A stretch of 48,108 nt of DNA from Acetobacteraceae bacterium (lineage in GTDB: Bacteria > Pseudomonadota > Alphaproteobacteria > Acetobacterales > Acetobacteraceae). The stretch is taken from positions 1-48,108 of the forward strand of contig JANXRN010000384.1 in assembly GCA_025352995.1 (NCBI GenBank), given 5' to 3'. The notes under the pieces are model-generated. The model was not told the origin of the DNA and did not search any database. It saw only the letters and a program-made list of their open reading frames with translations. Of this stretch, positions 8,985 through 29,049 are shown in pieces (the first letter of the stretch is position 1; each line of letters opens with the position of its first letter). A program made the translations under genes and the position numbers.

Positions 8985-9709
8985 AATCGCTAGCCGTCAC
9001 CCTGCTCGCCATCAGCCTCACCGGCTGCGGCAATCTCACCCGCCTGTCCGAAGTCGGCCGCCCGCCATCCATGACGCCGATCAGCGACCCCACCCGAGAC
9101 GCCAACTACCGCCCGCTCACCATGCCCATGCCCGCCCTGCAAGTCGCCGCCCCCGACGCCGGCACCCTCTGGCGTAACGGCAGCCGCGCCTTCTTCAAAG
9201 ATCAACGCGCATCCGGCGTCGGCGATATCCTGACCGTCTTCGTCAACATCACCGATACCGCCAACCTGAAAAACGGCACCACCGCCACCCGAACCAGCGC
9301 GGAAGGCATGGGCCTACCGCATATGCTCGGCCTCGAAAACGCCGCCCAACATCTGTTCGGAACCCCATCTTCCAGCCTCGTCAGCGGCAGCAGCAACAAC
9401 TCAAACGTCGGATCGTCCGAGCTCAAGCGAAACGAAACCGTCACCCTGAAACTTGCCGGCGTCATCACCCAAGTCCTGCCCAACGGCAACCTCGTCGTCT
9501 CCGCCAAACAAGAAGTGCGGGTCAATTCCGAACTGCGCGAACTCGCCGTCAGCGGCGTCATCCGCCCGCAAGACATCGCCAGCGACAATACAGTCCAACA
9601 TGACCGCATGGCCGAAGCCCGTATCGCCTATGGCGGGCGCGGCCAGATGACGGACGTGCAAACCCCGCGTTGGGGGCAGCAGGTGCTGGATTTGGTGTTG
9701 CCGTTTTGA
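8981..9709 (+). CDS. flgH: FlgH, flagellar L-ring lipoprotein
   Basis: Outer-membrane L-ring lipoprotein, 242 residues. The signal peptide ends in the lipobox SLTGC at about residue 16. The typical FlgH features follow: SLW/TLWRNGSRAFFKDQRA near 60, the VGDILTVFVNITDTANLKN strand, and the C-terminal VSGVIRPQDIASDNTVQHD and MAEARIAYGGRG blocks. Last gene of the flgFGAH operon. Its stop is followed directly by the 227-bp palindromic element, which probably ends the transcript. Confidence 0.96.
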   Translation: MKSLAVTLLAISLTGCGNLTRLSEVGRPPSMTPISDPTRDANYRPLTMPMPALQVAAPDAGTLWRNGSRAFFKDQRASGVGDILTVFVNITDTANLKNGTTATRTSAEGMGLPHMLGLENAAQHLFGTPSSSLVSGSSNNSNVGSSELKRNETVTLKLAGVITQVLPNGNLVVSAKQEVRVNSELRELAVSGVIRPQDIASDNTVQHDRMAEARIAYGGRGQMTDVQTPRWGQQVLDLVLPF

Positions 9710-9936
9710 GGGAGGCAAGGAAGCGCTGGGGCGCTGCCCCAGACCCCGCCAGGGAAGGTCCCTGGACGCCAAACCCTTAAGAGGGCTGGAATGAAGCAGG
9801 GGGGGCTAGGTACTGGTTGCAACCGATACCTAGCCCCCCCCTGCTTCATTCCAGCCTTGCTTTCTTAGGATAGGGGTTCGGGGCCCGGCCGCGGCGGGGG
9901 GCGAGGGGGCAGAGCCCCTCGCCTTCCTTGCCTCCC
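9710..9936. repeat. Nested palindromic element, two inverted GC-rich repeats around a long hairpin
   Basis: The outermost arms, 9710-9723 and 9923-9936, are a perfect 14-bp inverted repeat (GGGAGGCAAGGAAG). Each continues inward into a diverged copy of the same GC-rich repeat, with GGGGCGCTGCCCC on the left and GGGGGCAGAGCCCC on the right. These copies flank the central hairpin at 9784-9856. The element begins right after the flgH stop and ends about 50 bp before the thiolase ATG. It resembles dispersed intergenic repeats I recall from Acetobacteraceae. It has no ORF of its own and no convincing target-site duplication. It could be a MITE- or REP/BIME-like element, a strong terminator, or both. 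Confidence 0.75.
9784..9856. terminator. Central 29-bp hairpin of the palindrome, probable flgFGAH terminator
   Basis: Arms 9784-9812 and 9827-9856 pair along 29 bp. The only flaw is one extra base in the C run (7 G against 8 C). The 14-base loop contains a further perfect palindrome, GGTTGCAACC (9815-9824), so the structure can close almost to its tip. There is no T run after it, so simple intrinsic termination is not certain. A role in mRNA 3'-end protection is equally possible. Confidence 0.55.
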
Positions 9937-9988
9937 TAAACCGCACCCCCTAACCTGCCCTGAAAGCCCACAACAGGAGATGTCCCCC

Positions 9989-11191
9989 ATGGCCGACGCT
10001 TTCATCTGCGACTTCGCCCGCACGCCGATCGGCCGTTATGCCGGGGTTTTGAAGGATGTACGCGCTGATGATTTGGCGGCGCATCCGTTGCGGGTGTTGC
10101 GGGAGCGGAATGCCCAGGTTGATTGGGCGGCATTGGATGATTGCTATCTTGGATGCGCCAATCAGGCGGGGGAGGATAACCGCAATGTTGCGCGCATGGC
10201 GACTTTGCTGGCCGGGTATCCGACGGAAGTGCCGGGCGGCACGGTAAACCGGCTCTGTGGTTCGGGCTTGGACGCGGTTGGCACGGCGGCGCGCGCGATC
10301 CGTTCGGGGGAGGCTGATTTGATGCTGGCGGGCGGCGTTGAAAGCATGACCCGCGCGCCGTTCGTCATGGGCAAGGCGACCGAGGCGTTTGCCCGTGCGG
10401 CGGAGGTTTACGACACCACGATCGGCTGGCGCTTTGTGAACGGGCTGATGAAAGCCAAGTATGGCACGGACGCGATGCCAGAAACCGGCGAGAACGTCGC
10501 CGAGGAATTCCAGATATCCCGCGAAGATCAGGACAAGTTTGCTTATCGCAGCCAGATGAATTGTGCGGCGGCGCAGAAATCGGGGTTTTTCGCGCGGGAG
10601 ATTGCACCGATCACCTTGAAGACCCGCAAGGGCGATGTGGTCATCGACACTGACGAACATCCGCGCGCCGATACCACGCTCGAAGGCTTGGCCAAGCTGA
10701 AAACTCCGTTCCGGACACCGGGAACTGTCACGGCGGGCAATGCCTCGGGCGTGAATGACGGTGCGGCGGCTTTGATCCTGGCGAGTGAGGATGGCGCGCG
10801 TCGCCATGGCCTAACACCCCGCGCCCGGGTCGTTGCGATGGCAACCGCCGGAGTGGCACCCCGCATCATGGGTATCGGCCCGGCACCGGCGGTGCAAAAA
10901 CTTCTGGCGCGGCTTGGCATGACGATCGGCGATATCGACCTGATCGAACTCAACGAAGCTTTTGCCAGCCAGGGCCTCGCGGTAATGCGGCAGCTTGGCT
11001 TGGCCGATGACGCCGAGCATGTGAACCCGCATGGCGGCGCGATTGCGCTCGGCCACCCGCTCGGCATGTCGGGCGCGCGTCTGGCGATGACGGCGGTCAG
11101 CGCGTTGGAACTGCGTGGCCAGAAGCGCGCCATCGTGACGATGTGCATCGGCGTCGGGCAAGGGATCGCTGCCCTGATCGAGCGCGTGTAG
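9989..11191 (+). CDS. pcaF: Beta-ketoadipyl-CoA thiolase-like acyltransferase
   Basis: A 400-residue thiolase. It is closest in my recollection to PcaF/PaaJ, which cleave 3-oxoadipyl-CoA to succinyl-CoA and acetyl-CoA at the end of aromatic degradation. Supporting blocks are [16 protein letters not shown] at the start, [19 protein letters not shown]-like text, and the nucleophile Cys in [38 protein letters not shown], the [16 protein letters not shown] His box and the second Cys in TMCIGVGQG complete the set. AGGAGA at 9975-9980 fits the ATG at 9989 better than the ATG at 9980. It could feed products of the adjacent ring-cleavage operon into central metabolism. PcaF and general acetyl-CoA acetyltransferase activity cannot be separated by sequence reading alone. 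Confidence 0.82.
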
Positions 11192-11200
11192 CGGCAAAAC

Positions 11201-13204
11201 ATGGAAGCGCTGTCGGTCGCTGCATTTCTGGCGGCCGACCCGCAGGCGTTGGTTGAACGTTTGGCATTTGCCGACCAGCAACGATTTTCTCGCAATCAGG
11301 GCCAGCAACTTCTCGCCTGGGACGCGTCCATCCGCATCTTGCGCGTTGCCTTCAGCGATTGGCCGGAAGCAAGCGATTGGCGACTGGTGCTGGAATATGA
11401 CATGCGGCGCCTCGGCCGGCGGATTGATGCGGTTCTGGTGACCCCGCGCGGCATTATTGTGCTGGAATTCAAAACCGGCGCATCAGGCGTCGATGCGCAA
11501 GCGCGACGGCAAGCGGAAGACTACGCGCTTGATCTGGAGATATTTCATTCGGCGAGCGACGATCATCCTATCCTGCCCATCGTGGTTGCCAGCAATGCCG
11601 CCACCGGCCCGACCGCATGGCCGTTCATGTATCGCGGATTTGTCGATGCAGGTCTGACCGCGTCACCCAGGGGATTGGGAATTTTGGTGCGAGAGGTCTG
11701 GGCGCGCCTTCCGGTACCGCCCAATTTGCTCGATGTGCAGAATTGGGACCAGGCACCCTACCGGCCGGTGCCAGGCATTATCGATGCTGCTTGCACGCTC
11801 TATTCCCATCACGGCGTCGCAGATATCGCCAGCGCCCGGGCCGAAGCGCATAATCTGACAACGACCAAGGACGCCATCCTTGATGCTATCGCCGCCGCGC
11901 GCCGCGACCAGCATCATGTCATCCTGTTCGTAACCGGCATTCCCGGCGCCGGTAAGACCTTGTGTGGATTGAATGCGGTGTTCGGTGCCGGACGTGACGC
12001 CGGCGCCACCTTCCTGACCGGCAACCCAACCTTAGTACATGTCCTGCGGGAGGCTTTGGCGCGCGACGCCGCCCAGGGCAATCGCGACAAATTGCGCGCC
12101 GCGCGCCTCAAAACCAAAGCCTCCGTGCAAAAGCTCCCGGCGTTTCGCGATGAGTACGTCCGGACTGGCCACATCCCGCCGGAGCATGTCATCGTCATCG
12201 ACGAAGCCCAACGCGCTTGGGACGAACGTCAGGCGATCCGTGCCACCGCCACCAGGCCGGTGCAACTCAGCGCATCGGAACCCGCCCATTTACTCGACAT
12301 CATGGCGCGACACGCCGATTGGGCTGCGATCATTTGCCTGGTAGGTGGCGGCCAGGAAATCCACGACGGGGAAGGCGGGCTGGCGGAATGGGGCGGCGCC
12401 TTGGCGCAACGCCCATCCTGGCGCGTACTCGCAGCGCCTGAAACGCAACGTTCAGGCACGCCCCGCCAAACCTTGCCAGCTTTGGACGGCATGGCGCTCC
12501 AGGACAGCTTGCATCTCTCGGTCCCCATGCGGTCATTGCGCAATTCGGCTGCGGCGTCCTGGGTTGAAGCAGTGCTCGGCGGCGACCCCTCCGCAGCCCG
12601 CGCCATCGCCAGCGCCGGTCCCGCCCTGCCTTTCGTCCTCACGCGCGATCTTCACGCCATGCGCCAGCATTTGCGCGCCAGCAGCCGCGGCGAACGTCGG
12701 GCTGGCCTGGTCGGAAGTTCCGGCGGCAAACGCCGACGGGCCGATGGGCTGGGGGTCGAAGTCCCCCATATGGACGAGGCCGCCGTCGCACACTGGTTTC
12801 TCAACCGGTGGCCGGATGTCCGGGCATCAGACGCCCTCGAAACCGTCGCGACCGAGTTTGCCTGCCAGGGACTGGAGCTTGACTATGTCGGGCTGTGCTG
12901 GGGCGGCGACATGCTGTGGCTACCGCTGCAAAAAATCTGGCAGTGTCGCGCCTTCGTGGGTGACCAATGGAACCAGACCCGCAATCCCGAAACCATCGCC
13001 AACCGCACCAATACCTATCGCGTGCTGTTAACCCGGGCGCGCTACCAGACGGTGATCTGGGTGCCGCGTGGGGATCGGAGTGACCAAACCCGCAACCCAG
13101 ATGAACTGGATCGCGTCGCGCAATTTCTGCAAGCATGCGGCGTGGAAACCCTGCCGGAAGTCGTCGCCTCCCCGCGCGCGGATACGGTCGCAACGTTACT
13201 TTAG
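11201..13204 (+). CDS. PD-(D/E)XK nuclease - SF1 helicase (DUF2075-like) fusion
   Basis: A 667-residue two-domain protein. The N-terminal part (~1-170) has a PD-(D/E)XK core: Glu65, Asp76 in RRIDAVL, then Glu89-x-Lys91 in VLEFKTG and a Gln at 104 in RRQAEDYAL. The rest is a superfamily 1 ATPase/helicase of the DUF2075 type. It has Walker A GIPGAGKT (246-253), Walker B VIVIDEAQ (330-337), motif III GGGQEI (383-387 region), motif V EFACQGLELDYVG and motif VI YRVLLTRARY near the C-terminus. All key residues look intact. It should act on DNA or RNA in the cytoplasm. Similar nuclease-helicase fusions occur in defence loci, but no partner gene is adjacent. It starts 9 bp after pcaF with a weak ribosome site and ends 4 bp before the convergent binding-protein gene. 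Confidence 0.82.
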   Translation: MEALSVAAFLAADPQALVERLAFADQQRFSRNQGQQLLAWDASIRILRVAFSDWPEASDWRLVLEYDMRRLGRRIDAVLVTPRGIIVLEFKTGASGVDAQARRQAEDYALDLEIFHSASDDHPILPIVVASNAATGPTAWPFMYRGFVDAGLTASPRGLGILVREVWARLPVPPNLLDVQNWDQAPYRPVPGIIDAACTLYSHHGVADIASARAEAHNLTTTKDAILDAIAAARRDQHHVILFVTGIPGAGKTLCGLNAVFGAGRDAGATFLTGNPTLVHVLREALARDAAQGNRDKLRAARLKTKASVQKLPAFRDEYVRTGHIPPEHVIVIDEAQRAWDERQAIRATATRPVQLSASEPAHLLDIMARHADWAAIICLVGGGQEIHDGEGGLAEWGGALAQRPSWRVLAAPETQRSGTPRQTLPALDGMALQDSLHLSVPMRSLRNSAAASWVEAVLGGDPSAARAIASAGPALPFVLTRDLHAMRQHLRASSRGERRAGLVGSSGGKRRRADGLGVEVPHMDEAAVAHWFLNRWPDVRASDALETVATEFACQGLELDYVGLCWGGDMLWLPLQKIWQCRAFVGDQWNQTRNPETIANRTNTYRVLLTRARYQTVIWVPRGDRSDQTRNPDELDRVAQFLQACGVETLPEVVASPRADTVATLL

Positions 13205-13208
13205 GCCG

Positions 13209-14354
13209 TTATTTCAAGCTGCATGCCGCCGAATACGCTGCCGGAATTTGGGTGCGGAATTTACGCTCAGTCTTCAATCCCAACACCCCATCGGCGCCCT
13301 TTGCGACCGCCAATTCGAACCAATCCAAAACTGGCCCCTGATTGTTGCCGAAGCTGAACCGCCCGCGCACACTGGCTATATCGGTTGCTTTCAAGGCTGC
13401 CTGGAAAGCGGCATCAAGCTTGCCGCCCGATTTTCGCAGTGCGGCGCCAATCATGTTCGCGGTTTCAAACCCGTGTGCCGCGTAGTAGGTCGGCGGCCGG
13501 TGATACGCCGCGCGATAGGCCGCAACAAATTCCTTGTTGGCGGCGTTATCGAAATCCTCATTCCATTCGGCCGCAATATGCATGTTGCTCGCCGCATCCC
13601 CTACTGCCGCCAGCAGTCGCGGATCGAGTGAGGGTGCCGCCACCACCAACGGAATCTTGTCCTTCAACCCCGATGCCGCCCATTGCTTGAGGAACACAAT
13701 CCCCAACCCACCCGGTTCAAATTCGTAAATTGCGTCCGGATTGGCGGCGCGAATTTGCGCGATTTCGGCACTGAAATCATTCTGATCGAGGCCGGTATAA
13801 ATCTCACCCACGATGGCGCCCTTGAATTCGCGCTTCACCGCGGCGACCACCTGCTTGCCGGCCTGATAGTTCGGCGCCATCACGAACAGTCGCTTCATTC
13901 CCAGTTCATTGGCGAGCACGCCGGCCGAGGCATGCAAATTTTCGTCCCAGCCAGTGACAAAGTAGTTCACCTGGCAGTTCTTGCCGGCATATTCGTTGGG
14001 CGATGTGTTAGGTCCAAGCCATAGCGCGTCGGCGTCCAGAATATCCCCCAGCACCGCCAACGCGACATTGGTGAAAATCATCCCGGTAAACAGCTTCACC
14101 CCGTCGGATTTCAACTGCCGCTGCACGATCTGCTTGGCCTGCGCCGGTTTCAGCCCGTCATCTTCAACCAGGACCGACACCGCAACCCCACCAAGCTTGC
14201 CGTCACGCACCGCCAGCATGAAGCCATCGCGCATATCTTCCCCGAGATAGCCGCCGGGACCCGACAGGGTGGTAACAAAGCCGATCTTGACCTGCGCCAT
14301 CGCCGGCGCCGCGACCAGCAGCAGGCCAGTCAGGAACCAACCAAGCCGCTTCAT
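13209..14354 (-). CDS. Liv-type ABC transporter substrate-binding protein 2
   Basis: A 381-residue periplasmic binding protein of the leucine-binding (Peripla_BP_6) family. The signal peptide is MKRLGWFLTGLLLVAAPAMA, then VKIGFVTTLSGPGGYLG begins the mature fold. I start at ATG 14354, which overlaps the esterase stop by 4 bp and has GAAGG upstream, rather than at 14423. It is a clear paralogue of the binding protein at 20607-21770, about half identical by eye, sharing VLVEDDGLKPAQAKQ, MAPNYQAGK/LAPNYPAGK and WN(E/S)DFDNAANK. It is the last gene of the 13-gene leftward operon, 6.4 kb from its permease genes. Two binding proteins for one permease suggest two related ligands. Confidence 0.93.
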   Translation of the reverse strand: MKRLGWFLTGLLLVAAPAMAQVKIGFVTTLSGPGGYLGEDMRDGFMLAVRDGKLGGVAVSVLVEDDGLKPAQAKQIVQRQLKSDGVKLFTGMIFTNVALAVLGDILDADALWLGPNTSPNEYAGKNCQVNYFVTGWDENLHASAGVLANELGMKRLFVMAPNYQAGKQVVAAVKREFKGAIVGEIYTGLDQNDFSAEIAQIRAANPDAIYEFEPGGLGIVFLKQWAASGLKDKIPLVVAAPSLDPRLLAAVGDAASNMHIAAEWNEDFDNAANKEFVAAYRAAYHRPPTYYAAHGFETANMIGAALRKSGGKLDAAFQAALKATDIASVRGRFSFGNNQGPVLDWFELAVAKGADGVLGLKTERKFRTQIPAAYSAACSLK

Positions 14355-15805
14355 CCTTCGACCCCTCCACGCCACACCGCGCCCGACGGGTCGCCGGCAA
14401 TGCCCAGCACCCGATCGAAGCACATTGTTTGCCGGCTCGCGCGCAAATAAGGCGGCCAGAGCAGGCCAGGGCTGTGCGGGTCGCCAGATTCGGCAAATTC
14501 ACTCCAGGCGCCACGCATCGCGGCCGACAAAGCCACCATTTCCGCGCGATCGCCACCGGTCAACATCGCCGCGTCCGCCCAGGCTGGGAAGCTGCCGAAC
14601 ACAAACGGCAATTCGATGCAGTGACAGGCTTTGAATTTGCTACCGGCCGGCGCCCAGCGGAACTCATACACCCAGACTTCCGCCCCTGCGTCAGTTGCCG
14701 CATCCGCCAGCGCGAGGGACGGAAACAAAAACACATGATCGGTCATCAAATCGCCGAGCACATCCATGTCGGTCGCGCCAAGCCTGCGGCGGCGATAAAG
14801 CGCGGCGGCATCGGCGGACCCACTCAACTCCGCGAAACGCGCCGCCATCGCCCCTGGATCGGGCGGGTTCATCGCCGGATCGGCCGCGAAGAAAGCGTGC
14901 ATTTCTTCCCGCGTGGTGCCGATGATCAGGCTGATATTGCGCGATGCAGCCTCGCCCGCCGCCGCCTGCACGAAGGCGCTGGCATCGGACATGCTATCAA
15001 ACACCGGCAGGAAGGGCGGCGTGACATCGGCAAAGCGCCCGACCTCCCGCGCGACCTGCATTTGGGCCGCAACAATCCGCGCCGCGGGGATTGTCGCCAG
15101 ATCTTCCGGCCTGGCATCAAGCGCCGCGCACAACGCATCCGCATTGGCCCGCGCCTGCGCCCGACTATGCGGTGCCAAAGCCGCCGGCGTGCTTTGCAAA
15201 ATCGCGCGCTCAAACAGGCCCCTGGTTTCCCACATGGTCAGCAAGCACATGATCGCATGCGCACCCGCCGATTGGCCCATCAAGGTCACGCGTGCCGGAT
15301 CGCCGCCGAAGGCTGCAATATTGTCACGCACCCAGCGCAACGCAGCGACCATATCCTGCAAGCCCATATTGCCCTCGGCGATCCCCGGCAAATGCAGAAA
15401 CCCCAATGCGCCGAGCCGGTAATTGACCCCGACCACAACAACATCGCCGTCGCCGGCCAGGACCGAGCCGTCATACCAATCTAGCGAGCCGGCCCCGGAC
15501 AAGTAGGCACCCCCATGGAGGAACACCATCACCGCCCGCTTGGCGTCATCCACCGCGGGCGTCGCGATGGTCAGGGTCAGACATTCCTCATCCTGCGGGC
15601 GGGTGAAATCGCCCATCGCCGCACGCAAACGCGACGGCGGCTGCGGCGCGATCGGACCATGCCGGGTGGCATCGCGTGGCCCAATCCAGCGCTCGGCCGG
15701 CTTCGGCGGGGCAAACCGGCTCGCAGTCGCGTAGGGCACGCCGCGAAACACCGTCACGCCCGACGCGCCCACCAGATCACCAAGACTAACGCGGGCGATT
15801 GTCAT
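14351..15805 (-). CDS. Type-B carboxylesterase (second of tandem pair)
   Basis: A 484-residue alpha/beta-hydrolase of the carboxylesterase type-B/pNB-esterase family. The N-terminal signature VFRGVPYA, the oxyanion-hole HGGAY and the nucleophile elbow GQSAGA are present. So are the acidic residue in GTTREEMHAFF and the catalytic His in FKACHCIELPFVFG. No signal peptide is seen, so it acts in the cytoplasm on imported esters or amides. The start is ATG 15805, overlapping the upstream esterase stop by 4 bp; the ORF can extend to 15820 but without support. It is a tandem paralogue of the next gene upstream. The natural substrate is not known. Confidence 0.9.
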   Translation of the reverse strand: MTIARVSLGDLVGASGVTVFRGVPYATASRFAPPKPAERWIGPRDATRHGPIAPQPPSRLRAAMGDFTRPQDEECLTLTIATPAVDDAKRAVMVFLHGGAYLSGAGSLDWYDGSVLAGDGDVVVVGVNYRLGALGFLHLPGIAEGNMGLQDMVAALRWVRDNIAAFGGDPARVTLMGQSAGAHAIMCLLTMWETRGLFERAILQSTPAALAPHSRAQARANADALCAALDARPEDLATIPAARIVAAQMQVAREVGRFADVTPPFLPVFDSMSDASAFVQAAAGEAASRNISLIIGTTREEMHAFFAADPAMNPPDPGAMAARFAELSGSADAAALYRRRRLGATDMDVLGDLMTDHVFLFPSLALADAATDAGAEVWVYEFRWAPAGSKFKACHCIELPFVFGSFPAWADAAMLTGGDRAEMVALSAAMRGAWSEFAESGDPHSPGLLWPPYLRASRQTMCFDRVLGIAGDPSGAVWRGGVEG

Positions 15806-17265
15806 CCGCGCGCCCTCCACCCGAGCCCAGCAGGGTCGCCATCCACGCCGCAGATCGCCCCAAACCGCATGGTCGCACGGGTCGCATCATTGTAGCTGGG
15901 CCAATCCGCACCCGGCATCCCATTAGCAGCGAACCCCGTCCAGCAAGCTCTGATCAAGTCCGACAACGCCTCCATTTCCGCCCGGTCACCGCCAAGAAGC
16001 ATAGCCGCATCCGGCCATTGATCGAAATTCCCGAAGACGAATGGCAGCTCAATGCAATGGCAGGCCTTGAATCTGCTCGTAGGCGGCGCCCAGTCGAACT
16101 GATAGGCATAGGCCTGCCCACCGGCCGCAGAAATCGCCTCGGCCAGCCGCATCGTCGGCCACAGAAACGTGTGATCGCTGGTCAGATCGGCCAGCAAATC
16201 CGTCGCACTGCCACCCGGCCGACGGCGGCGATAAGCGTCTTGATCGCCGCCCAATGCCGCAAACCGATCCGCCACCGCAGCAGGATCGGGACTAGCCATT
16301 GCGGGGTTGGATGCGAAAAACGCATGCACTTCCTCTCGCGTGGCGCCGATCAGCACCGGCTTGTCAACCGAAGCAGCGGCAATCGAGCGAAGCAGATCAG
16401 CCTCGGTCATCGCCTCAGGCAAGGTCGGCATGAAGGGCGGAGTGGTTTCACCAAAGCGCGCGCGCGCCTGGGCCAGCGCACCTTGCGCTGCCAATAGCCG
16501 CTCAACCGGCTCGGCGCGCAATCGCGTAACCGCATCCGCCGCATCTGCGTCGATATCCAACATCTGACAATATTGCGCTGTGATCGCTTGCGCATCGCTT
16601 ACAGTCAGCGGCGCCCGGCCAAAACCGCCGCTTTGCAAAATGGCCTGGTGAAACAACCCCCGTGCCGCGGGATCGAGCAAAAGCCGCCCAATGCTGGCCG
16701 CCCCGGCTGACTGGCCACCAACTGTTACCCGCCCCGGATCGCCGCCAAACTCCGCAATGTTGGCCACAACCCAGGCCAACGCCGCGATCTGGTCCTGCGT
16801 GCCAGGATCGGCCACCGCCAGGTCCCTGTGCTTCAAATACCCCAGCGCGCCCAACCGATAATTGACGCCGACGACCACCATATTGCCGTCGCGTGCCAAC
16901 GTCGCGCCATCGTACCAATCCAGCGATCCTGCGCCCGAAATCCAGGCGCCGCCATGCAACCAGACCAGCACCGGACGACGCCCGGCATCGACCGACGGCG
17001 TCCAGATTGTCAGCGTCAGGCAATCTTCATCCATCGGCCGGGTAAAGCCCCCCATCGCCGCCGCTAACCGCGATGGGGATTGCGGGGCAATCGGGCCATG
17101 AACAGTTGCGTCGCGCACCCCGGCCCAAGCCACCGCGGGCTGCGGCGCAGCAAAGCGCCGCTCACCAATCGGCGGCAGCGCGTAAGGGACGCCGCGAAAC
17201 AGGGTCACGCCATGCTGACGCAGCCCTTGCAACTCACCCAAAGCCGTTCGCGTTATCGTTGGCAT
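15802..17265 (-). CDS. Type-B carboxylesterase (first of tandem pair)
   Basis: A 487-residue member of the same family as its neighbour, with which it aligns along the full length. It shows TLFRGVPYALPPIGERRF, the oxyanion-hole HGGAW, the GQSAGA nucleophile elbow, acid residue in GATREEVHAFF and His in FKACHCIELPFVFG. It has no signal peptide. It follows livF after 12 bp and overlaps the second esterase by 4 bp. Linkage to an importer suggests that both esterases process the transported compound; the differences around the acyl pocket may reflect two substrates. Confidence 0.9.
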   Translation of the reverse strand: MPTITRTALGELQGLRQHGVTLFRGVPYALPPIGERRFAAPQPAVAWAGVRDATVHGPIAPQSPSRLAAAMGGFTRPMDEDCLTLTIWTPSVDAGRRPVLVWLHGGAWISGAGSLDWYDGATLARDGNMVVVGVNYRLGALGYLKHRDLAVADPGTQDQIAALAWVVANIAEFGGDPGRVTVGGQSAGAASIGRLLLDPAARGLFHQAILQSGGFGRAPLTVSDAQAITAQYCQMLDIDADAADAVTRLRAEPVERLLAAQGALAQARARFGETTPPFMPTLPEAMTEADLLRSIAAASVDKPVLIGATREEVHAFFASNPAMASPDPAAVADRFAALGGDQDAYRRRRPGGSATDLLADLTSDHTFLWPTMRLAEAISAAGGQAYAYQFDWAPPTSRFKACHCIELPFVFGNFDQWPDAAMLLGGDRAEMEALSDLIRACWTGFAANGMPGADWPSYNDATRATMRFGAICGVDGDPAGLGWRARG

Positions 17266-17277
17266 GGCAGTCCGTCC

Positions 17278-17979
17278 CTATAGCCCCAGGCTGCGATGCA
17301 CCATATCTGGGGCGTCATCCATCTCGACACTAGTGCCTGTCCAGACTGTTTGTCCTTTTTCCACAATATGATGCTGATCTGCAAGTGTTTTTAATGCGAC
17401 GATGTTCTTGTCGATGATCAAGATGGATTGCCCCGATGCTTTTAGTTCCGCAACACATCGCCATATTTCGTTACGAATGAGCGGCGCCAGACCTTCCGTC
17501 GCCTCATCAAGGATCAGCAATTTCGGGTTGGTCATCAGCGCCCGCCCGATCGCCAGCATCTGCTGCTCGCCCCCCGACAAGGTGCCGCCGCGCTGACCGG
17601 CACGCTCAGCCAGACGTGGGAATAATCTATAGATGCGGGGCAGAGTCCAAGGCTGTTCCGCGCCCAACCGATTGGCGGCCGTGGCGATCAGGTTCTCCCG
17701 GACGGTCAAGGTTGGAAACACCAGCCGCCCTTCCGGCACCAGGCCAATGCCGCGCCGTGCGATCGCATCGGACGCCAGACCATCGATGCGCGCGCCATCA
17801 AACCGGATTTCCCCACCACGCGGCGCCAACAGCCCCATGATGGCCCGTACAATGGTGGTCTTGCCCATCCCGTTGCGCCCAAGCAATGTCACCACCTGCC
17901 CCGCGCCAATACTCAGGGAAATATCGGTCAACACTGAACTTGCGCCGTAGCCGGCCCGCAACCCTTGCACCGCCAGCAT
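17278..17979 (-). CDS. livF: LivF-type ABC transporter ATPase
   Basis: A 233-residue ATPase of the branched-chain amino-acid (HAAT) importer family. It has Walker A GRNGMGKT (34-41), signature TLSGGEQQML, Walker B KLLILDEATEG and the short C-terminus typical of LivF. The ATG overlaps the livG stop by one base (TGATG). It should pair with LivG on the LivHM permease. HAAT systems carry many substrates besides amino acids, including aromatic acids and urea. The symbol marks the family, not the ligand. Confidence 0.92.
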   Translation of the reverse strand: MLAVQGLRAGYGASSVLTDISLSIGAGQVVTLLGRNGMGKTTIVRAIMGLLAPRGGEIRFDGARIDGLASDAIARRGIGLVPEGRLVFPTLTVRENLIATAANRLGAEQPWTLPRIYRLFPRLAERAGQRGGTLSGGEQQMLAIGRALMTNPKLLILDEATEGLAPLIRNEIWRCVAELKASGQSILIIDKNIVALKTLADQHHIVEKGQTVWTGTSVEMDDAPDMVHRSLGL

Positions 17980-18725
17980 CAGGCAGCCTCCCCAAGGTAC
18001 GCCGCACGCACCGCTGGGTCGGCCCGCATCTCGGCAAAGCTGCCTTCGGCGATCACGTGGCCGGCGACCATCACGCTGACCCGATCCGCCAAAGCTTCCA
18101 CCGCATCCATGTCGTGCTCGACCAGCAGGATGGTGACGCTGCCCTTCAGCGCGGCAAGCAGGGCGGTCATATCCTGCGATTCGGTCTGCCCCAGCCCGGC
18201 CATCGGCTCATCCAGCAGCAACATCCGCGCGCCGGTCATCAATGCCATCGCCAGTTCCAATTGGCGCTGCTCGCCATGCGCGAGGTCTTCGGCGCGGGTC
18301 ATTGCGCGCGCACCAAGGCCCACCCGATCCAGCATTGCCCGGGCGGGATCGGTCAGATCACGGTCACGCCGCGCGTCACCCCAACACCGAAATGAATGTC
18401 CGGCGCGGATCTGCGCGACGATGGCCACGTTTTCCAACGCAGTGAAGTGCGGCAACACCGAGGTAATCTGGAACGATCGGGTCAATCCCTGCTTCACCCG
18501 CGCGGGCATGGCGATCTTGGTGATGTCGGCGCCGTCGAGGCGAATGTGACCAAGGTCGGGGACAATTTCGCCTGACAGCAGCCCGATCGCGGTCGATTTG
18601 CCCGCGCCGTTCGGGCCAATCAACGCGTGCAAGCTGCCTGGCATGACCGAAAGCGCGAAATCATTGCAGGCCAGCAACCCGCCATAGCGCTTGGTCAGGG
18701 CGGAAACTTCGAGCAGCGGTATCAT
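17979..18725 (-). CDS. livG: LivG-type ABC transporter ATPase
   Basis: A 248-residue ATPase beginning MIPLLEVSALTKRYGG. Walker A is GPNGAGKST (37-45), the signature is LAHGEQRQLELAMAL and Walker B is RMLLLDEPMAGL. The LivG-specific insertion with TRSFQITSVLPHFTALENV is present. The ATG at 18725 overlaps the livM stop (ATGA); an upstream extension to 18935 lies inside livM in another frame and is rejected. The signature Ser is replaced (LAHGEQ instead of LSYGQQ), a variation known in this family. Confidence 0.92.
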   Translation of the reverse strand: MIPLLEVSALTKRYGGLLACNDFALSVMPGSLHALIGPNGAGKSTAIGLLSGEIVPDLGHIRLDGADITKIAMPARVKQGLTRSFQITSVLPHFTALENVAIVAQIRAGHSFRCWGDARRDRDLTDPARAMLDRVGLGARAMTRAEDLAHGEQRQLELAMALMTGARMLLLDEPMAGLGQTESQDMTALLAALKGSVTILLVEHDMDAVEALADRVSVMVAGHVIAEGSFAEMRADPAVRAAYLGEAA

Positions 18726-19693
18726 CCCCGCCCCCCCAACGCACCCCAGATGCCGCGCCTGGTAAGCAGAATCACCGCAACCAGCACCGGCCCCATGACG
18801 ATCATCCAATGTTCGGTCCACTGCGCGAGCCAGGATTGCAGCAGCACCATCGCGGCCGCCCCGAACACCGGCCCCACCAGACTGCCGACGCCCCCCAATA
18901 CCACCATCACCATGAAATCGCCCGATGTGGTCCAATGCAACATGTCCGGGCTGACAAAGCGTAGCAAATTGGCCTGCAGCGCCCCGGCGAGACCCGCAAT
19001 TGCACCCGCCAAAGTGAACGCCGCAAGCTTATAGCGCGTCGCATCCAGCCCGATCGCCGCCATCCGCCGTTCATTCTGCTTGATGCCAAGCAGCACCAGC
19101 CCGAAACGCGACCGTACCAGCCGGTGGCACAGCGCCAAGACAATCATCAGCACCAAAAGGCAGACATAGTAAAAAGCAACATCGTCGCGCGGGTTGATCC
19201 ACGGCAACCCGTTACGCCGGCGAAAGCCCAACCCGTCATCGCCACCATAGGTCTTCAACGAAACAAACAAATAAAACAGCATCTGCGCGAAGGCCAAGGT
19301 GATCATGATGAATGACACGCCGCTGGTGCGCAGCGACAAGGCACCGATGGCGAGCGCCGCCAATGCCGACACCAGAATTGCCGCGGGCCATGCCACCCAC
19401 GCCTCGGTCGCGCCCGGAACCAAACCCACGAACGCGGTCCCCTCAGCGGCATGAAACGCCAGAATACCAACTACGTAGCCACCAAGACCAAAAAATCCGG
19501 CATGGCCGAACGACGATAGCCCCGTGTAGCCGATCAGCAGATCAAGCCCGATCGCCGCGATCGCGTAGATCGCAATCTGGGTGCCGAGCGACACCAGATC
19601 GGGCATCGCCAGGCGGTCGGCCAGATATGGCAGCCCAGTCAACAGCATGGCCAGCAACGCCAACATGATGCGCTTGCGACCCAGATTAGCCAT
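18722..19693 (-). CDS. livM: LivM-type ABC transporter permease
   Basis: A 323-residue polytopic membrane protein. It has about eight to nine hydrophobic segments and the LivM hallmarks GLDLLIGYTGLSSFGHAGFFGLGGY and GVSFIMITLAFAQM. IKQNERRMAAIGLDATRYKL, the ATPase-coupling (EAA-like) loop, follows. The start is ATG 19693, which overlaps the livH stop by 8 bp. It forms the translocation channel with LivH. Confidence 0.93.
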   Translation of the reverse strand: MANLGRKRIMLALLAMLLTGLPYLADRLAMPDLVSLGTQIAIYAIAAIGLDLLIGYTGLSSFGHAGFFGLGGYVVGILAFHAAEGTAFVGLVPGATEAWVAWPAAILVSALAALAIGALSLRTSGVSFIMITLAFAQMLFYLFVSLKTYGGDDGLGFRRRNGLPWINPRDDVAFYYVCLLVLMIVLALCHRLVRSRFGLVLLGIKQNERRMAAIGLDATRYKLAAFTLAGAIAGLAGALQANLLRFVSPDMLHWTTSGDFMVMVVLGGVGSLVGPVFGAAAMVLLQSWLAQWTEHWMIVMGPVLVAVILLTRRGIWGALGGRG

Positions 19694-20600
19694 GGGCGGG
19701 GAACAATCCGCGCGGACGCACAATCAGCACCACCGCCATCAAAATCATCGACGCCATCGATGACAGCCCGGCGCCCAAGCCATCGGCTTCCGTCGACGCC
19801 ATCACCATTTTCAACATTGTCGGCAAATAGGCGCGGGTCAGCGTATCGACCATGCCGACCAGCATCGCGCCGGCCAGTGCGCCGCGGATTGACCCGATGC
19901 CGCCGATAACAATGACCACAAAAGTGCTGATCAAGATGCGGTCGCCCATCCCGACCTGCACCGACAGCAGCGGCCCGACCATCGCGCCCGCCAACCCCGC
20001 CAGCAACGCCCCAAGGCCAAACACCAAAGTGTAGAGCAGCCCGATGCGGACCCCGAGCGCGCGCACCATCTCGCGATGGGTAGCCCCCGCCCGCACCAGC
20101 ATCCCGATCCTGGTATGGACAATCAGCCCATACAAGATCGCCGCTACCACAGCGCCAACCGCGATGATGGCGAGGCGATAGATTGGGTATGGCACCCCAG
20201 GAATGAAGGTGACCGCACCCGACAGGAAGTCCGGAATCGCCGCCATCATCGGCTGGCGGCCGAAAATCATCGCCATCGCCTCATTGAAAAACAAAATCAG
20301 GCCGAAGGTTGCTAGCACCTGATCGAGATGGTCGCGTGCATAAAGCCGCCGTAAGATCGTGGCTTCCATCGCCATGCCAACCACCGCCGCAACCGACATT
20401 CCAGCGGCAACGGCGAGCAAAAAGCTCCCAGTTGCCGCCTGAGTCCGTGCAGCGACAAACGCCCCGATCATATAGAGCGAGCCATGCGCGAGGTTGATCA
20501 GCCCCATGATGCCGAACACCAGGGTCAACCCGGCCGCCAGCAGAAACAGCGTAACGCCGTATTGCAGGCCGTTGAGCAGTTGCTCAAAAAGAAGCGTCAT
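19686..20600 (-). CDS. livH: LivH-type ABC transporter permease
   Basis: A 304-residue inner-membrane permease with about eight transmembrane segments. Family motifs are LLNGLQYGVTLFLLAAGLTLVFG, cut here for length, then MGLINLAHGSLYMIGAF near the N-terminus. VRAGATHREMVRALGV is the ATPase-contact loop, and VVIVGGIGSIRGALAGAMLVG-like text follows it. It begins 6 bp after the binding-protein gene. Confidence 0.93.
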   Translation of the reverse strand: MTLLFEQLLNGLQYGVTLFLLAAGLTLVFGIMGLINLAHGSLYMIGAFVAARTQAATGSFLLAVAAGMSVAAVVGMAMEATILRRLYARDHLDQVLATFGLILFFNEAMAMIFGRQPMMAAIPDFLSGAVTFIPGVPYPIYRLAIIAVGAVVAAILYGLIVHTRIGMLVRAGATHREMVRALGVRIGLLYTLVFGLGALLAGLAGAMVGPLLSVQVGMGDRILISTFVVIVIGGIGSIRGALAGAMLVGMVDTLTRAYLPTMLKMVMASTEADGLGAGLSSMASMILMAVVLIVRPRGLFPAHG

Positions 20601-28182: not shown

Positions 28183-29049
28183 ATGCGCTGTTTGCACCCC
28201 ATTCTTGTCGCTGTCTGGCTGATCATTTTCGGTGGCAATGCGTCGGCGACCGATCTGAAACTTGCCACCTGGAATCTTGAATGGCTGACCGAACGGCCAG
28301 CCGGCGATCCAGCGCTGCCCAAGGATGTACGACCGAAGGCCGCCGCCGATATCATGGTATTGCGCGACTACGCCGCTAAGCTTGCGGCTGATATTGTGGC
28401 ATTTCAGGAAGTTGACGGCGCTAGGATCGCGGCCCAGATATTTCCCGCCGCCGACTACAACTTGCATTTGACCGGCGATAAGGTCACCCAGCGCGTCGGC
28501 TTTGCGGTCCGCCGCAATTTACGCTTCACAATCAACCCCGACCTGGTTGGATTGGATGTCTATCCCGACGCCAAATTCCACCTGCGCAGCGGCGCGGACA
28601 TTACCTTGGAACTGCCGGGCGGCAAGCTGCGGGTGCTCAATGTGCATCTCAAAACCGGATGTCGCGAAGACCGCCTCAGTTCCGGGCGACCCCAATGCGA
28701 GACGCTGGGCCGGCAATTGGCACCGTTGCAGGGCTGGATTGCGCAACGCCGGGCGGACGGTGTGCCGTTCGTGCTGATCGGCGATTTCAACCGCTGGATG
28801 GATGGACACGACCCGTTCTATGCCGGACTCGCGGCGTCTGGGCCTTTGGCGCGAGCCACCGAAGGGCAAACCAGCCCGTGCTGGGGTGGCGGCGGCTTCA
28901 TCGACCATATCATCGCCGGCGGGAGTGCCCGGCCCTGGATGCAGGCCGGCAGCTTGCGCGTGCTGGTTTACAAAGAGAAAGGGATTACCTGGAAGGAACG
29001 CCTGTCGGACCATTGCCCGGTTTCCGTACGCTTTCGTGTGCCCGACTGA
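28183..29049 (+). CDS. Secreted endonuclease/exonuclease/phosphatase (EEP) family protein
   Basis: A 288-residue protein with a signal peptide (hydrophobic PILVAVWLIIFGGNASA, cleavage near residue 22) and a DNase I-like fold. Catalytic motifs in order: ATWNLEW (Asn31, Glu33), FQEVD, the NVHLK His, IGDFNRW, FIDHI and a terminal SDHCPV. All metal and catalytic residues appear intact. It is predicted to be a periplasmic or secreted metal-dependent phosphodiesterase; nucleic acid, phospholipid or phosphoinositide substrates are all possible. It is transcribed divergently from the korC operon. Confidence 0.85.
   Translation: MRCLHPILVAVWLIIFGGNASATDLKLATWNLEWLTERPAGDPALPKDVRPKAAADIMVLRDYAAKLAADIVAFQEVDGARIAAQIFPAADYNLHLTGDKVTQRVGFAVRRNLRFTINPDLVGLDVYPDAKFHLRSGADITLELPGGKLRVLNVHLKTGCREDRLSSGRPQCETLGRQLAPLQGWIAQRRADGVPFVLIGDFNRWMDGHDPFYAGLAASGPLARATEGQTSPCWGGGGFIDHIIAGGSARPWMQAGSLRVLVYKEKGITWKERLSDHCPVSVRFRVPD

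What the first reader, a model, noticed from the sequence alone, without database searches (positions are those of the whole stretch)
11201..13204. Solitary PD-(D/E)XK-SF1 helicase fusion, candidate single-gene defence system
The protein has an intact nuclease core (Asp76, Glu89-x-Lys91) and intact helicase motifs (Walker A 246-253, Walker B 330-337, motifs III, V, VI) of the DUF2075 type. It stands between a metabolic gene and a metabolic operon with no repair partner. Nuclease-helicase fusions are common in antiphage systems. A role here is inference, and RNA or DNA repair is also possible.
Basis: partly seen in the sequence, partly recalled or inferred. Interest (0 to 1): 0.6.

Follow-up and report, generated by a model that had tools for sequence, protein, structure and literature searches.

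The report
Long-resident nuclease-helicase gene, PDC-S41 family
The gene makes a DNA-cutting, strand-unwinding type of enzyme from a family already listed as a possible anti-virus defence, but in this bacterial family it sits as a long-settled chromosomal gene among ordinary genes, so its defence role is unproven.

Summary
The gene is in 24 of 36 genomes of its bacterial family, 5 of 5 in its genus. The family copies form one clade. Of 32 family loci, 20 share one non-defence neighbourhood and 6, with the window, a flagellar site. The window also keeps the order helicase...EEP-MFS-PPK2. Selection is purifying (omega 0.085-0.130). Copies outside are rare; some lie near a retron, restriction genes or recombinases. 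I read it as a resident, catalytically intact DNA-surveillance nuclease-helicase; whether it serves immunity, repair or both is open. A possible kinship of its nuclease domain with the Schlafen 'linker' has weak structural support and failed a sequence-profile test.

The parts
11201..13204 (+). PDC-S41-type nuclease-helicase gene, 667 aa
   Evidence: ORF; PADLOC PDLC05014 E 5.4e-222; PF09848 E 8.7e-71
11201..11830 (+). N-terminal PD-(D/E)XK nuclease domain (aa 1-210)
   Evidence: model pLDDT 84.9, pTM 0.82; nuclease matches (Can2 Z 9.2, McrC 7.4, EndoMS 7.1); Foldseek best only E 5.9e-3
11393..11395 (+). Glu65, first acidic residue of the nuclease site
   Evidence: invariant in 34 of 34 sequences
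11426..11428 (+). Asp76
   Evidence: invariant in 34 of 34
11465..11473 (+). Glu89-Phe-Lys91 (E-x-K)
   Evidence: Glu and Lys invariant in 34 of 34
11510..11524 (+). Gln104-x-x-x-Tyr108 (QxxxY, name recalled, as in RecB/Cas4 nucleases)
   Evidence: each at least 90% of 34 sequences
11918..13066 (+). SLFN-g3 (SF1) helicase domain, aa 240-622
   Evidence: UvrD Z 17.8
11936..11959 (+). Walker A GIPGAGKT, aa 246-253
12188..12211 (+). Walker B VIVIDEAQ, aa 330-337
12344..12361 (+). motif III GGGQEI, aa 382-387
12851..12898 (+). motif V region TEFACQGLELDYVGLC, aa 551-566
13016..13042 (+). motif VI YRVLLTRAR, aa 606-614
9989..11191 (+). thiolase, directly upstream, same strand (9 bp gap)
   Evidence: PF00108/PF02803
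6454..9709 (+). flagellar genes ending in flgH; the conserved site of the genus
   Evidence: FlgH; synteny in G001-G004 and G008 (G001 and G003 contigs start inside it); other flg names recalled
13209..20600 (-). convergent periplasmic-binding gene, two carboxylesterases and a branched-chain amino acid ABC operon
   Evidence: 5 of the genes scanned
28183..29049 (+). endonuclease/exonuclease/phosphatase (EEP) gene, first or second gene after the helicase in 11 related loci
   Evidence: 50.6% identity
29161..30351 (+). MFS gene, follows EEP in some relatives
   Evidence: 45% identity
31599..32492 (+). PPK2 gene, follows EEP or MFS in some relatives
   Evidence: 54% identity; one search names PF03976

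Best explanation
It is a catalytically intact member of the PDC-S41 family: one polypeptide with an N-terminal PD-(D/E)XK nuclease (E65, D76, E89-x-K91, QxxxY) and a UvrD/Schlafen-type SF1 helicase. Shown: the architecture, the intact active-site residues, one clade in the bacterial family, a largely conserved locus, and purifying selection. Inferred mechanism: the SF1 motor loads on exposed single strands or ends, moves using ATP, and feeds the strand to the nuclease, destroying aberrant DNA (linear, gapped or fork-stalled DNA, including incoming phage or plasmid DNA). In this lineage it acts as a resident genome-surveillance enzyme rather than a mobile defence cassette. I favour a joint immunity and genome-quality role over either alone.
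For: PADLOC PDC-S41 over the full length. Nuclease residues E65, D76, E89, K91 invariant in 34 of 34 sequences including distant SLFN-g3 helicases. The nuclease model matches DNA nucleases and the helicase matches UvrD. In the bacterial family 24 of 36 genomes carry it, 5 of 5 in the genus. The 30 family rows form one clade, 100/100. 20 of 32 family loci hold a FemAB-like or EamA gene upstream and/or EEP downstream, and 6 of 32 hold flgH upstream. Omega 0.085-0.130 in 7 of 7 family pairs; no 80-codon window has pN/pS above 0.44 in 5 pairs, one of them outside the family. rpoB and helicase trees share 5 of 17 splits against a shuffle mean of 0.146, maximum 2. The start overlaps the upstream gene by 4 bases in 12 of 32 family loci, suggesting co-expression with ordinary genes.
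Against: No activity or phenotype is known, and DNA rather than RNA as substrate is inferred. 12 of 17 splits do not agree with rpoB; G035 and the pair G002/G008 stand out (rpoB of G002 and G008 is partial), so some transfer or replacement is likely. 12 of 36 family genomes lack the gene (two of these are only 86% complete), so it is not strictly core; absences go with smaller genomes (medians 2.9 and 4.5 Mb). 6 of 32 loci lie elsewhere. Copies outside the family are sometimes in defence or mobile settings, which favours a dedicated immune role, and many PDCs are said not to be associated with known defence islands (PMC12988326, passages), so the quiet neighbourhood is weak evidence.
Confidence: 0.45

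Rival explanations
1. Housekeeping DNA repair or replication enzyme with no immune role, a bacterial analogue of Dna2 or AddAB: the motor exposes a strand and the nuclease trims flaps, forks or mismatched ends.
For: Conserved non-defence neighbourhood, one clade and purifying selection. Dna2 (5ean) is rank 6 among the Foldseek matches of the full model, and NucS/EndoMS are the best, sub-threshold sequence-profile matches of the nuclease (E 0.3 and 0.67). Few PADLOC matches among neighbours of 20 family loci.
Against: Absent from 12 of 36 family genomes and rare outside (8 hits in 285 class genomes outside the family, 6 of them spanning the model), which is unusual for a core repair enzyme. Other copies of the family are sometimes found near a retron, restriction genes and recombinases.
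Confidence: 0.33
2. Dedicated, mobile single-gene antiphage system.
For: Family listed as candidate PDC-S41. Copies outside the clade lie near a type I-A retron (G677) and next to an Orf5/HEC-06-type gene (G320), near NgoFVII, a C5 methylase and Vsr (MT836127), and near recombinases or an integrase (L209-L211). A single-gene nuclease-helicase, Nhi, is described as an anti-phage system (PMC12904381, passages). Many PDCs are said to lie outside known islands (PMC12988326, passages).
Against: In this lineage: a largely fixed locus and one clade, few PADLOC matches around 20 family loci, and no mobility gene among the 10 window neighbours scanned with Pfam. No gene-wide or windowed sign of positive selection.
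Confidence: 0.15
3. RNA-directed enzyme: a tRNA, rRNA or mRNA cutter akin in effect to animal Schlafens or to RNA helicases.
For: The helicase is of the Schlafen group 3 Pfam family. Foldseek's first full-model match is SLFN11 (E 5e-8, TM only 0.30). Many RNA helicases appear among the fold matches.
Against: The Schlafen RNase core (AlbA_2, name recalled) is not among the Pfam matches. The nuclease model matches DNA nucleases (Can2, McrC, EndoMS, NucC, Hjc). UvrD, a DNA helicase, ranks first by VIA.
Confidence: 0.07

Closest known systems
PADLOC PDC-S41 (PDLC05014), candidate single-gene defence
   Same: Full-length match, residues 5-652 to positions 9-654 of 657, 736.7 bits.
   Different: Scores below the 12 higher-scoring copies from other bacterial families (853-971 bits), though above four lower ones (681-713 bits: G388, G488, G328, Geomonas). 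It belongs to a separate clade and lies in a largely fixed non-defence locus.
Classical SLFN-g3 (DUF2075, old name recalled) helicase proteins of other bacteria
   Same: Same order, PD-(D/E)XK then SF1 helicase, with W40, E65, R74, D76, E89 and K91 in common.
   Different: Only 17-20% identity (five sequences); three tested match PDC-S41 weakly (E 1.9e-13 to 4e-16).
Nhi (single-gene nuclease-helicase immunity)
   Same: One polypeptide with nuclease and helicase activities; the review says Nhi is thought to be activated on detecting phage SSB (PMC12904381, passages).
   Different: PADLOC Nhi model E 0.062, 9.9 bits: not a member.
Hachiman HamAB
   Different: Two genes; no Hachiman model is listed for this protein up to E 1. 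Similarity is one of principle only.
Human group III Schlafens (SLFN5, SLFN11, SLFN14)
   Same: Same helicase Pfam family by name; full-model alignment to SLFN11 398-899 over 385 residues, Z 14.1, rmsd 8.5.
   Different: They have an N-terminal Schlafen core, not found here. Their linker domain is not shown to be a nuclease; the profile test was not significant.

Membership tests
PDC-S41 | Full-length match to the PADLOC model | tested here: met
   E 5.4e-222, 9-654 of 657 positions
PDC-S41 | Intact nuclease and helicase active-site residues | tested here: met
   34 of 34 share E65, D76, E89, K91; 52 of 52 share the six helicase residues checked
PDC-S41 | Copies embedded among defence genes (how PDC families were found, PMC12988326 passages; not a property of each member) | tested here: inconclusive
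   Seen in some outside copies (G677, G320, MT836127). In 20 loci of this clade 147 neighbours gave 8 PADLOC models, single hits apart from mad3 (2): SoFic, PDC-M37B (2 models), DolB, PycC, MzaA, C3a214
PDC-S41 | Antiphage activity | not testable with these tools
   No experiment; validation pending for most PDCs (PMC12988326 passages)
Nhi | Match to the PADLOC Nhi model | tested here: not met
   E 0.062, 9.9 bits
Hachiman | HamA plus HamB gene pair | tested here: not met
   Single gene with metabolic neighbours; no Hachiman model listed for this protein up to E 1
Group III Schlafen | SLFN-g3 SF1 helicase domain | tested here: met
   PF09848 E 8.7e-71
Group III Schlafen | N-terminal Schlafen core RNase domain | tested here: not met
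   No such Pfam match listed up to E 1; the N-terminal model matches PD-(D/E)XK nucleases
Group III Schlafen | Linker (SWADL) domain homologous to the nuclease domain | tested here: inconclusive
   VIA Z 6.2 (SLFN5) and 5.8 (SLFN14), a range the tool says may mean only a common arrangement; hhalign E 0.24, 46 of 200 shuffles and the reversed alignment score as high

The most novel reading that the evidence does not exclude
The PDC-S41/SLFN-g3 nuclease-helicase is the bacterial counterpart of the linker-plus-helicase half of animal antiviral Schlafens. The Schlafen linker, described as of unknown function, would then be a dead PD-(D/E)XK nuclease, and in this bacterial family an active version has become a fixed, resident immune and genome-surveillance gene.
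Probability: 0.17. Interest if true: 0.75.

Novelty: new member of a known kind. Interest (0 to 1): 0.36.

Why it matters
Defence catalogues call PDC-S41 from sequence alone. Here one branch, common in a bacterial family, behaves like a settled chromosomal gene, so such calls may count resident genome-maintenance enzymes as defence systems, or else point to a vertically inherited immune gene. The conserved locus makes knock-out tests clear-cut. If the Schlafen link held, it would give the Schlafen linker domain an origin and a testable ancestry.

Tried and rejected
No convincing PDB sequence match with the single protein or with the narrow profiles. No NCBIfam match, no Rfam match, no tRNA in the window. 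In 9600-13500 the promoter scan found 1 (shuffles 1.0) and the terminator scan 1 (shuffles 4.1).

EEP as a dedicated partner was rejected: it is present in 32 of 37 family genomes, also where the helicase is absent or elsewhere.

One ancestral flg-helicase site for the whole bacterial family was considered and not claimed. flgH lies directly before the helicase, or with one gene between, only in G000-G004 and G008. In three genomes without the helicase (G013, G026, G029) flgH lies near the FemAB-like gene.

PADLOC enrichment is weaker than it looks. The 119 models for outside copies (148 proteins, 18 loci) come largely from a few proteins. Of 10 candidate neighbours tested singly, four matched strongly (three in G677, one in G320), two weakly (G362 Mrr-like, G342 PglW part) and four not at all; RmrA, MzaA and others were not assigned to loci. 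The control of 140 proteins gave 33 models, among them PD-T4-6, DinG and mad types (25 shown). Dropped: 16 control proteins (both G328 stretches; 18 of 20 stretches kept) for the residue limit, and 8 of 156 short proteins from the outside set. Set B used 20 of the family loci and 4 genes a side, the outside set 5 a side; PADLOC was not run on the window's own neighbours. L209-L211 come from a viral collection, so mobility genes there are expected. Tree and conservation sets left out broken or partial rows (49 rows, 52). The class search gave 9 of 289 genomes, two of them partial or weak, and the G320 copy has stops inside; the phylum search gave 21 of 398, 11 of them spanning the model, the own genome and G640 among these.

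Sequence support for the Schlafen linker idea failed: hhalign probability 0.25%, E 0.24; 46 of 200 column shuffles and the reversed alignment score as high. The wide profile that reaches SLFN11 (E 1.4e-4) ranks KaiC higher (1.4e-5), so much of that signal is the common P-loop.

The full-length model is mediocre (pLDDT 70.7, pTM 0.49), so its matches show the fold class only. For the nuclease model Foldseek found nothing at E 0.001 or better (best McrBC, E 5.9e-3). In VIA a family that is not listed is not excluded.

Papers: PDC-S41 is named in no held paper, no held paper has DUF2075, helicase and defense together, and none has Schlafen, linker domain, restriction endonuclease and fold together. 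The searched library holds no bioRxiv preprints beyond those in PubMed Central and lacks most subscription papers.

Full report
WHAT IS THERE. The window ORF 11201-13204 (+) encodes 667 aa. Pfam finds the SLFN-g3 helicase domain (PF09848, 240-622, E 8.7e-71) and only a weak NERD nuclease match (E 0.014). PADLOC matches the whole protein to PDC-S41 (E 5.4e-222), so the idea of a single-gene defence candidate is already catalogued. A survey describes PDCs as putative candidates found by guilt-by-embedding, validation pending for most, and says many are not associated with known defence islands (PMC12988326, passages read). PDC-S41 itself is named in no held paper.

FOLD AND ACTIVE SITE. A model of residues 1-210 is good (pLDDT 84.9, pTM 0.82). 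Foldseek gives no PDB match at E 0.001 or better (best McrBC, E 5.9e-3), but VIA's best rows are PD-(D/E)XK nucleases: Can2 Z 9.2 (133 aligned, rmsd 3.6), McrC 7.4, NucS/EndoMS 7.1-7.2, NucC 6.3, Hjc 6.1 (fold class recalled). In a 34-sequence alignment that includes distant SLFN-g3 proteins, W40, E65, R74, D76, E89 and K91 are invariant and Q104 and Y108 nearly so. The full model is mediocre (pLDDT 70.7, pTM 0.49). Its helicase part matches UvrD (Z 17.8, 312 aligned, rmsd 4.5) and SLFN11 (Z 14.1, 385 aligned, rmsd 8.5); Foldseek ranks SLFN11 first (E 5e-8, TM 0.30).

DISTRIBUTION. The window genome belongs to the Acetobacteraceae: two of its three nearest named loci are titled so and the third is titled Asaia, and they equal genus members G003, G001 and G004 in contig length. 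24 of 36 genomes of the bacterial family (own genome included) carry the gene, all 5 of the genus, and 0 of 24 other class members in that call. In a wider draw 9 of 289 class genomes matched, own genome included, two only partial or weak. In the phylum draw 21 of 398 matched, 11 of them spanning the model, own genome and G640 among these. Family genomes with the gene are larger (median 4.5 Mb, 25 genomes) than those without (2.9 Mb, 16 genomes; Mann-Whitney p 1e-4, sizes copied). Four plasmid records and one phage record hold a distant relative.

ONE CLADE AND ONE NEIGHBOURHOOD. The 30 family rows of the tree form one clade (100/100), apart from the higher-scoring PDC-S41 copies. With codon-model gene calls, 32 helicase-bearing family loci were compared. 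In 16 a FemAB-like gene lies upstream on the same strand, in 9 an EamA gene is directly upstream, and in 11 an EEP gene is the first or second gene downstream (names). Counting any of these, 20 of 32 share the neighbourhood. In 6 of 32 (G000-G004, G008) the gene follows flgH, with a thiolase between in three. In 6 of 32 (G005, G023, G024, G035, G640, L029) neither was seen; some contigs are short. The window joins the two types: its helicase is followed 15 kb on by EEP, MFS and PPK2, in the order seen beside the helicase elsewhere, and L026, L027 and L030 have the FemAB-like gene upstream but the window's esterase and ABC genes downstream. Eight genomes that lack the helicase carry other genes after the FemAB-like gene (G011, G012, G013, G014, G016, G029, G031, G034); for the other lacking genomes the place was not read there. 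EEP is not a dedicated partner: it occurs in 32 of 37 family genomes.

EVOLUTION. Pairwise omega of the helicase is 0.085-0.130 in 7 of 7 family pairs, within the range of its neighbours, and no 80-codon window has pN/pS above 0.44 in 5 pairs, one outside the family. Its dS is above the neighbour median in 7 of 7 pairs (read off), which may reflect weak codon bias or some recombination. Against rpoB (20 genomes, FastTree) 5 of 17 splits are shared (shuffle mean 0.146, maximum 2; Spearman 0.66); 12 are not, and G035 and the pair G002/G008 stand out. Inheritance is therefore mostly vertical at coarse scale, with some exchange.

CONTRAST WITH COPIES ELSEWHERE. Some copies outside the clade are embedded in defence or mobile DNA: a type I-A retron near the G677 copy and an Orf5/HEC-06-type gene by the G320 copy, a weak Mrr-like match by the G362 copy, a resolvase near the G272 copy, NgoFVII, a C5 methylase, Vsr and Z1 on MT836127, recombinases on L209 and L211, and an integrase with a DNA methylase on L210. 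That is at least 8 of the 21 outside copies read, three of them from a viral collection; the other loci were scanned only in bulk. A more distant plasmid copy lies beside McrC, with a type I system some kilobases off. Neighbours of 20 loci of this clade gave 8 PADLOC models in 147 proteins; random stretches of the outside genomes gave 33 models in 140 proteins, the outside neighbours 119 in 148. Models are not proteins, and the contrast is statistically thin.

MECHANISM. I commit to an SF1 motor that exposes a strand and feeds it to a DNA-type PD-(D/E)XK nuclease, clearing aberrant or foreign DNA. The parts are shown; DNA as substrate and the trigger are inferred. Hachiman is a precedent for damage sensing by a nuclease-helicase pair (PMC12278908, abstract), and Nhi for a single-gene version thought to detect phage SSB (PMC12904381, passages). 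Neither is a family match.

SCHLAFEN LEAD. The nuclease model aligns with the SLFN5 and SLFN14 linker at Z 6.2 and 5.8, a range that may mean only a common arrangement, and the full model aligns in domain order with SLFN11 398-899. The linker was described as of unknown function (PMC8789055, passages). A wide profile reaches SLFN11 in the helicase (E 1.4e-4) but ranks KaiC higher and does not reach the linker. Profile comparison of nuclease and linker was not significant: E 0.24, 46 of 200 shuffles and the reversed alignment as high. I keep this as the boldest reading that is not excluded, at low probability.

VERDICT. Observation confirmed; interpretation partly supported and already catalogued as a candidate. 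The new element is that this branch of PDC-S41 is a resident, mostly vertically inherited gene of the Acetobacteraceae.

Noticed in passing
window 9706-9945: Nested palindromic element between flgH and the thiolase (22-nt arms 100% complementary). A 240-base query gave 49 matching rows in this genome, several at contig ends: a MITE- or REP-like dispersed repeat.
   Followed up: partly
L190 2363-4360 (genome G031): In a genome without the helicase, the place after the FemAB-like gene holds a 666-aa protein with TPR repeats and a weak NB-ARC match, possibly a STAND-type sensor.
   Followed up: partly
L063 9074-10921 (G010): The helicase reads in two frames with the nuclease motifs lost: a broken copy or an assembly error.
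   Followed up: no
L066 8988-9479 (G004): A second, C-terminal fragment of a related helicase (about 41% identity) in a genome that also has the full gene.
   Followed up: no
L099 7966-8757 and L101 7952-8572: NERD-domain proteins lie next to PDC-S41 copies: directly upstream in G342 and two genes downstream on the other strand in G592; possible partners of outside-clade copies.
   Followed up: partly
window 11201-13204 and relatives: Synonymous divergence of the helicase is above the neighbour median in 7 of 7 family pairs (read off); cause unknown.
   Followed up: no
window 14351-17241: Two adjacent carboxylesterase paralogues; in the related locus L044 only part of the second one remains.
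   Followed up: no
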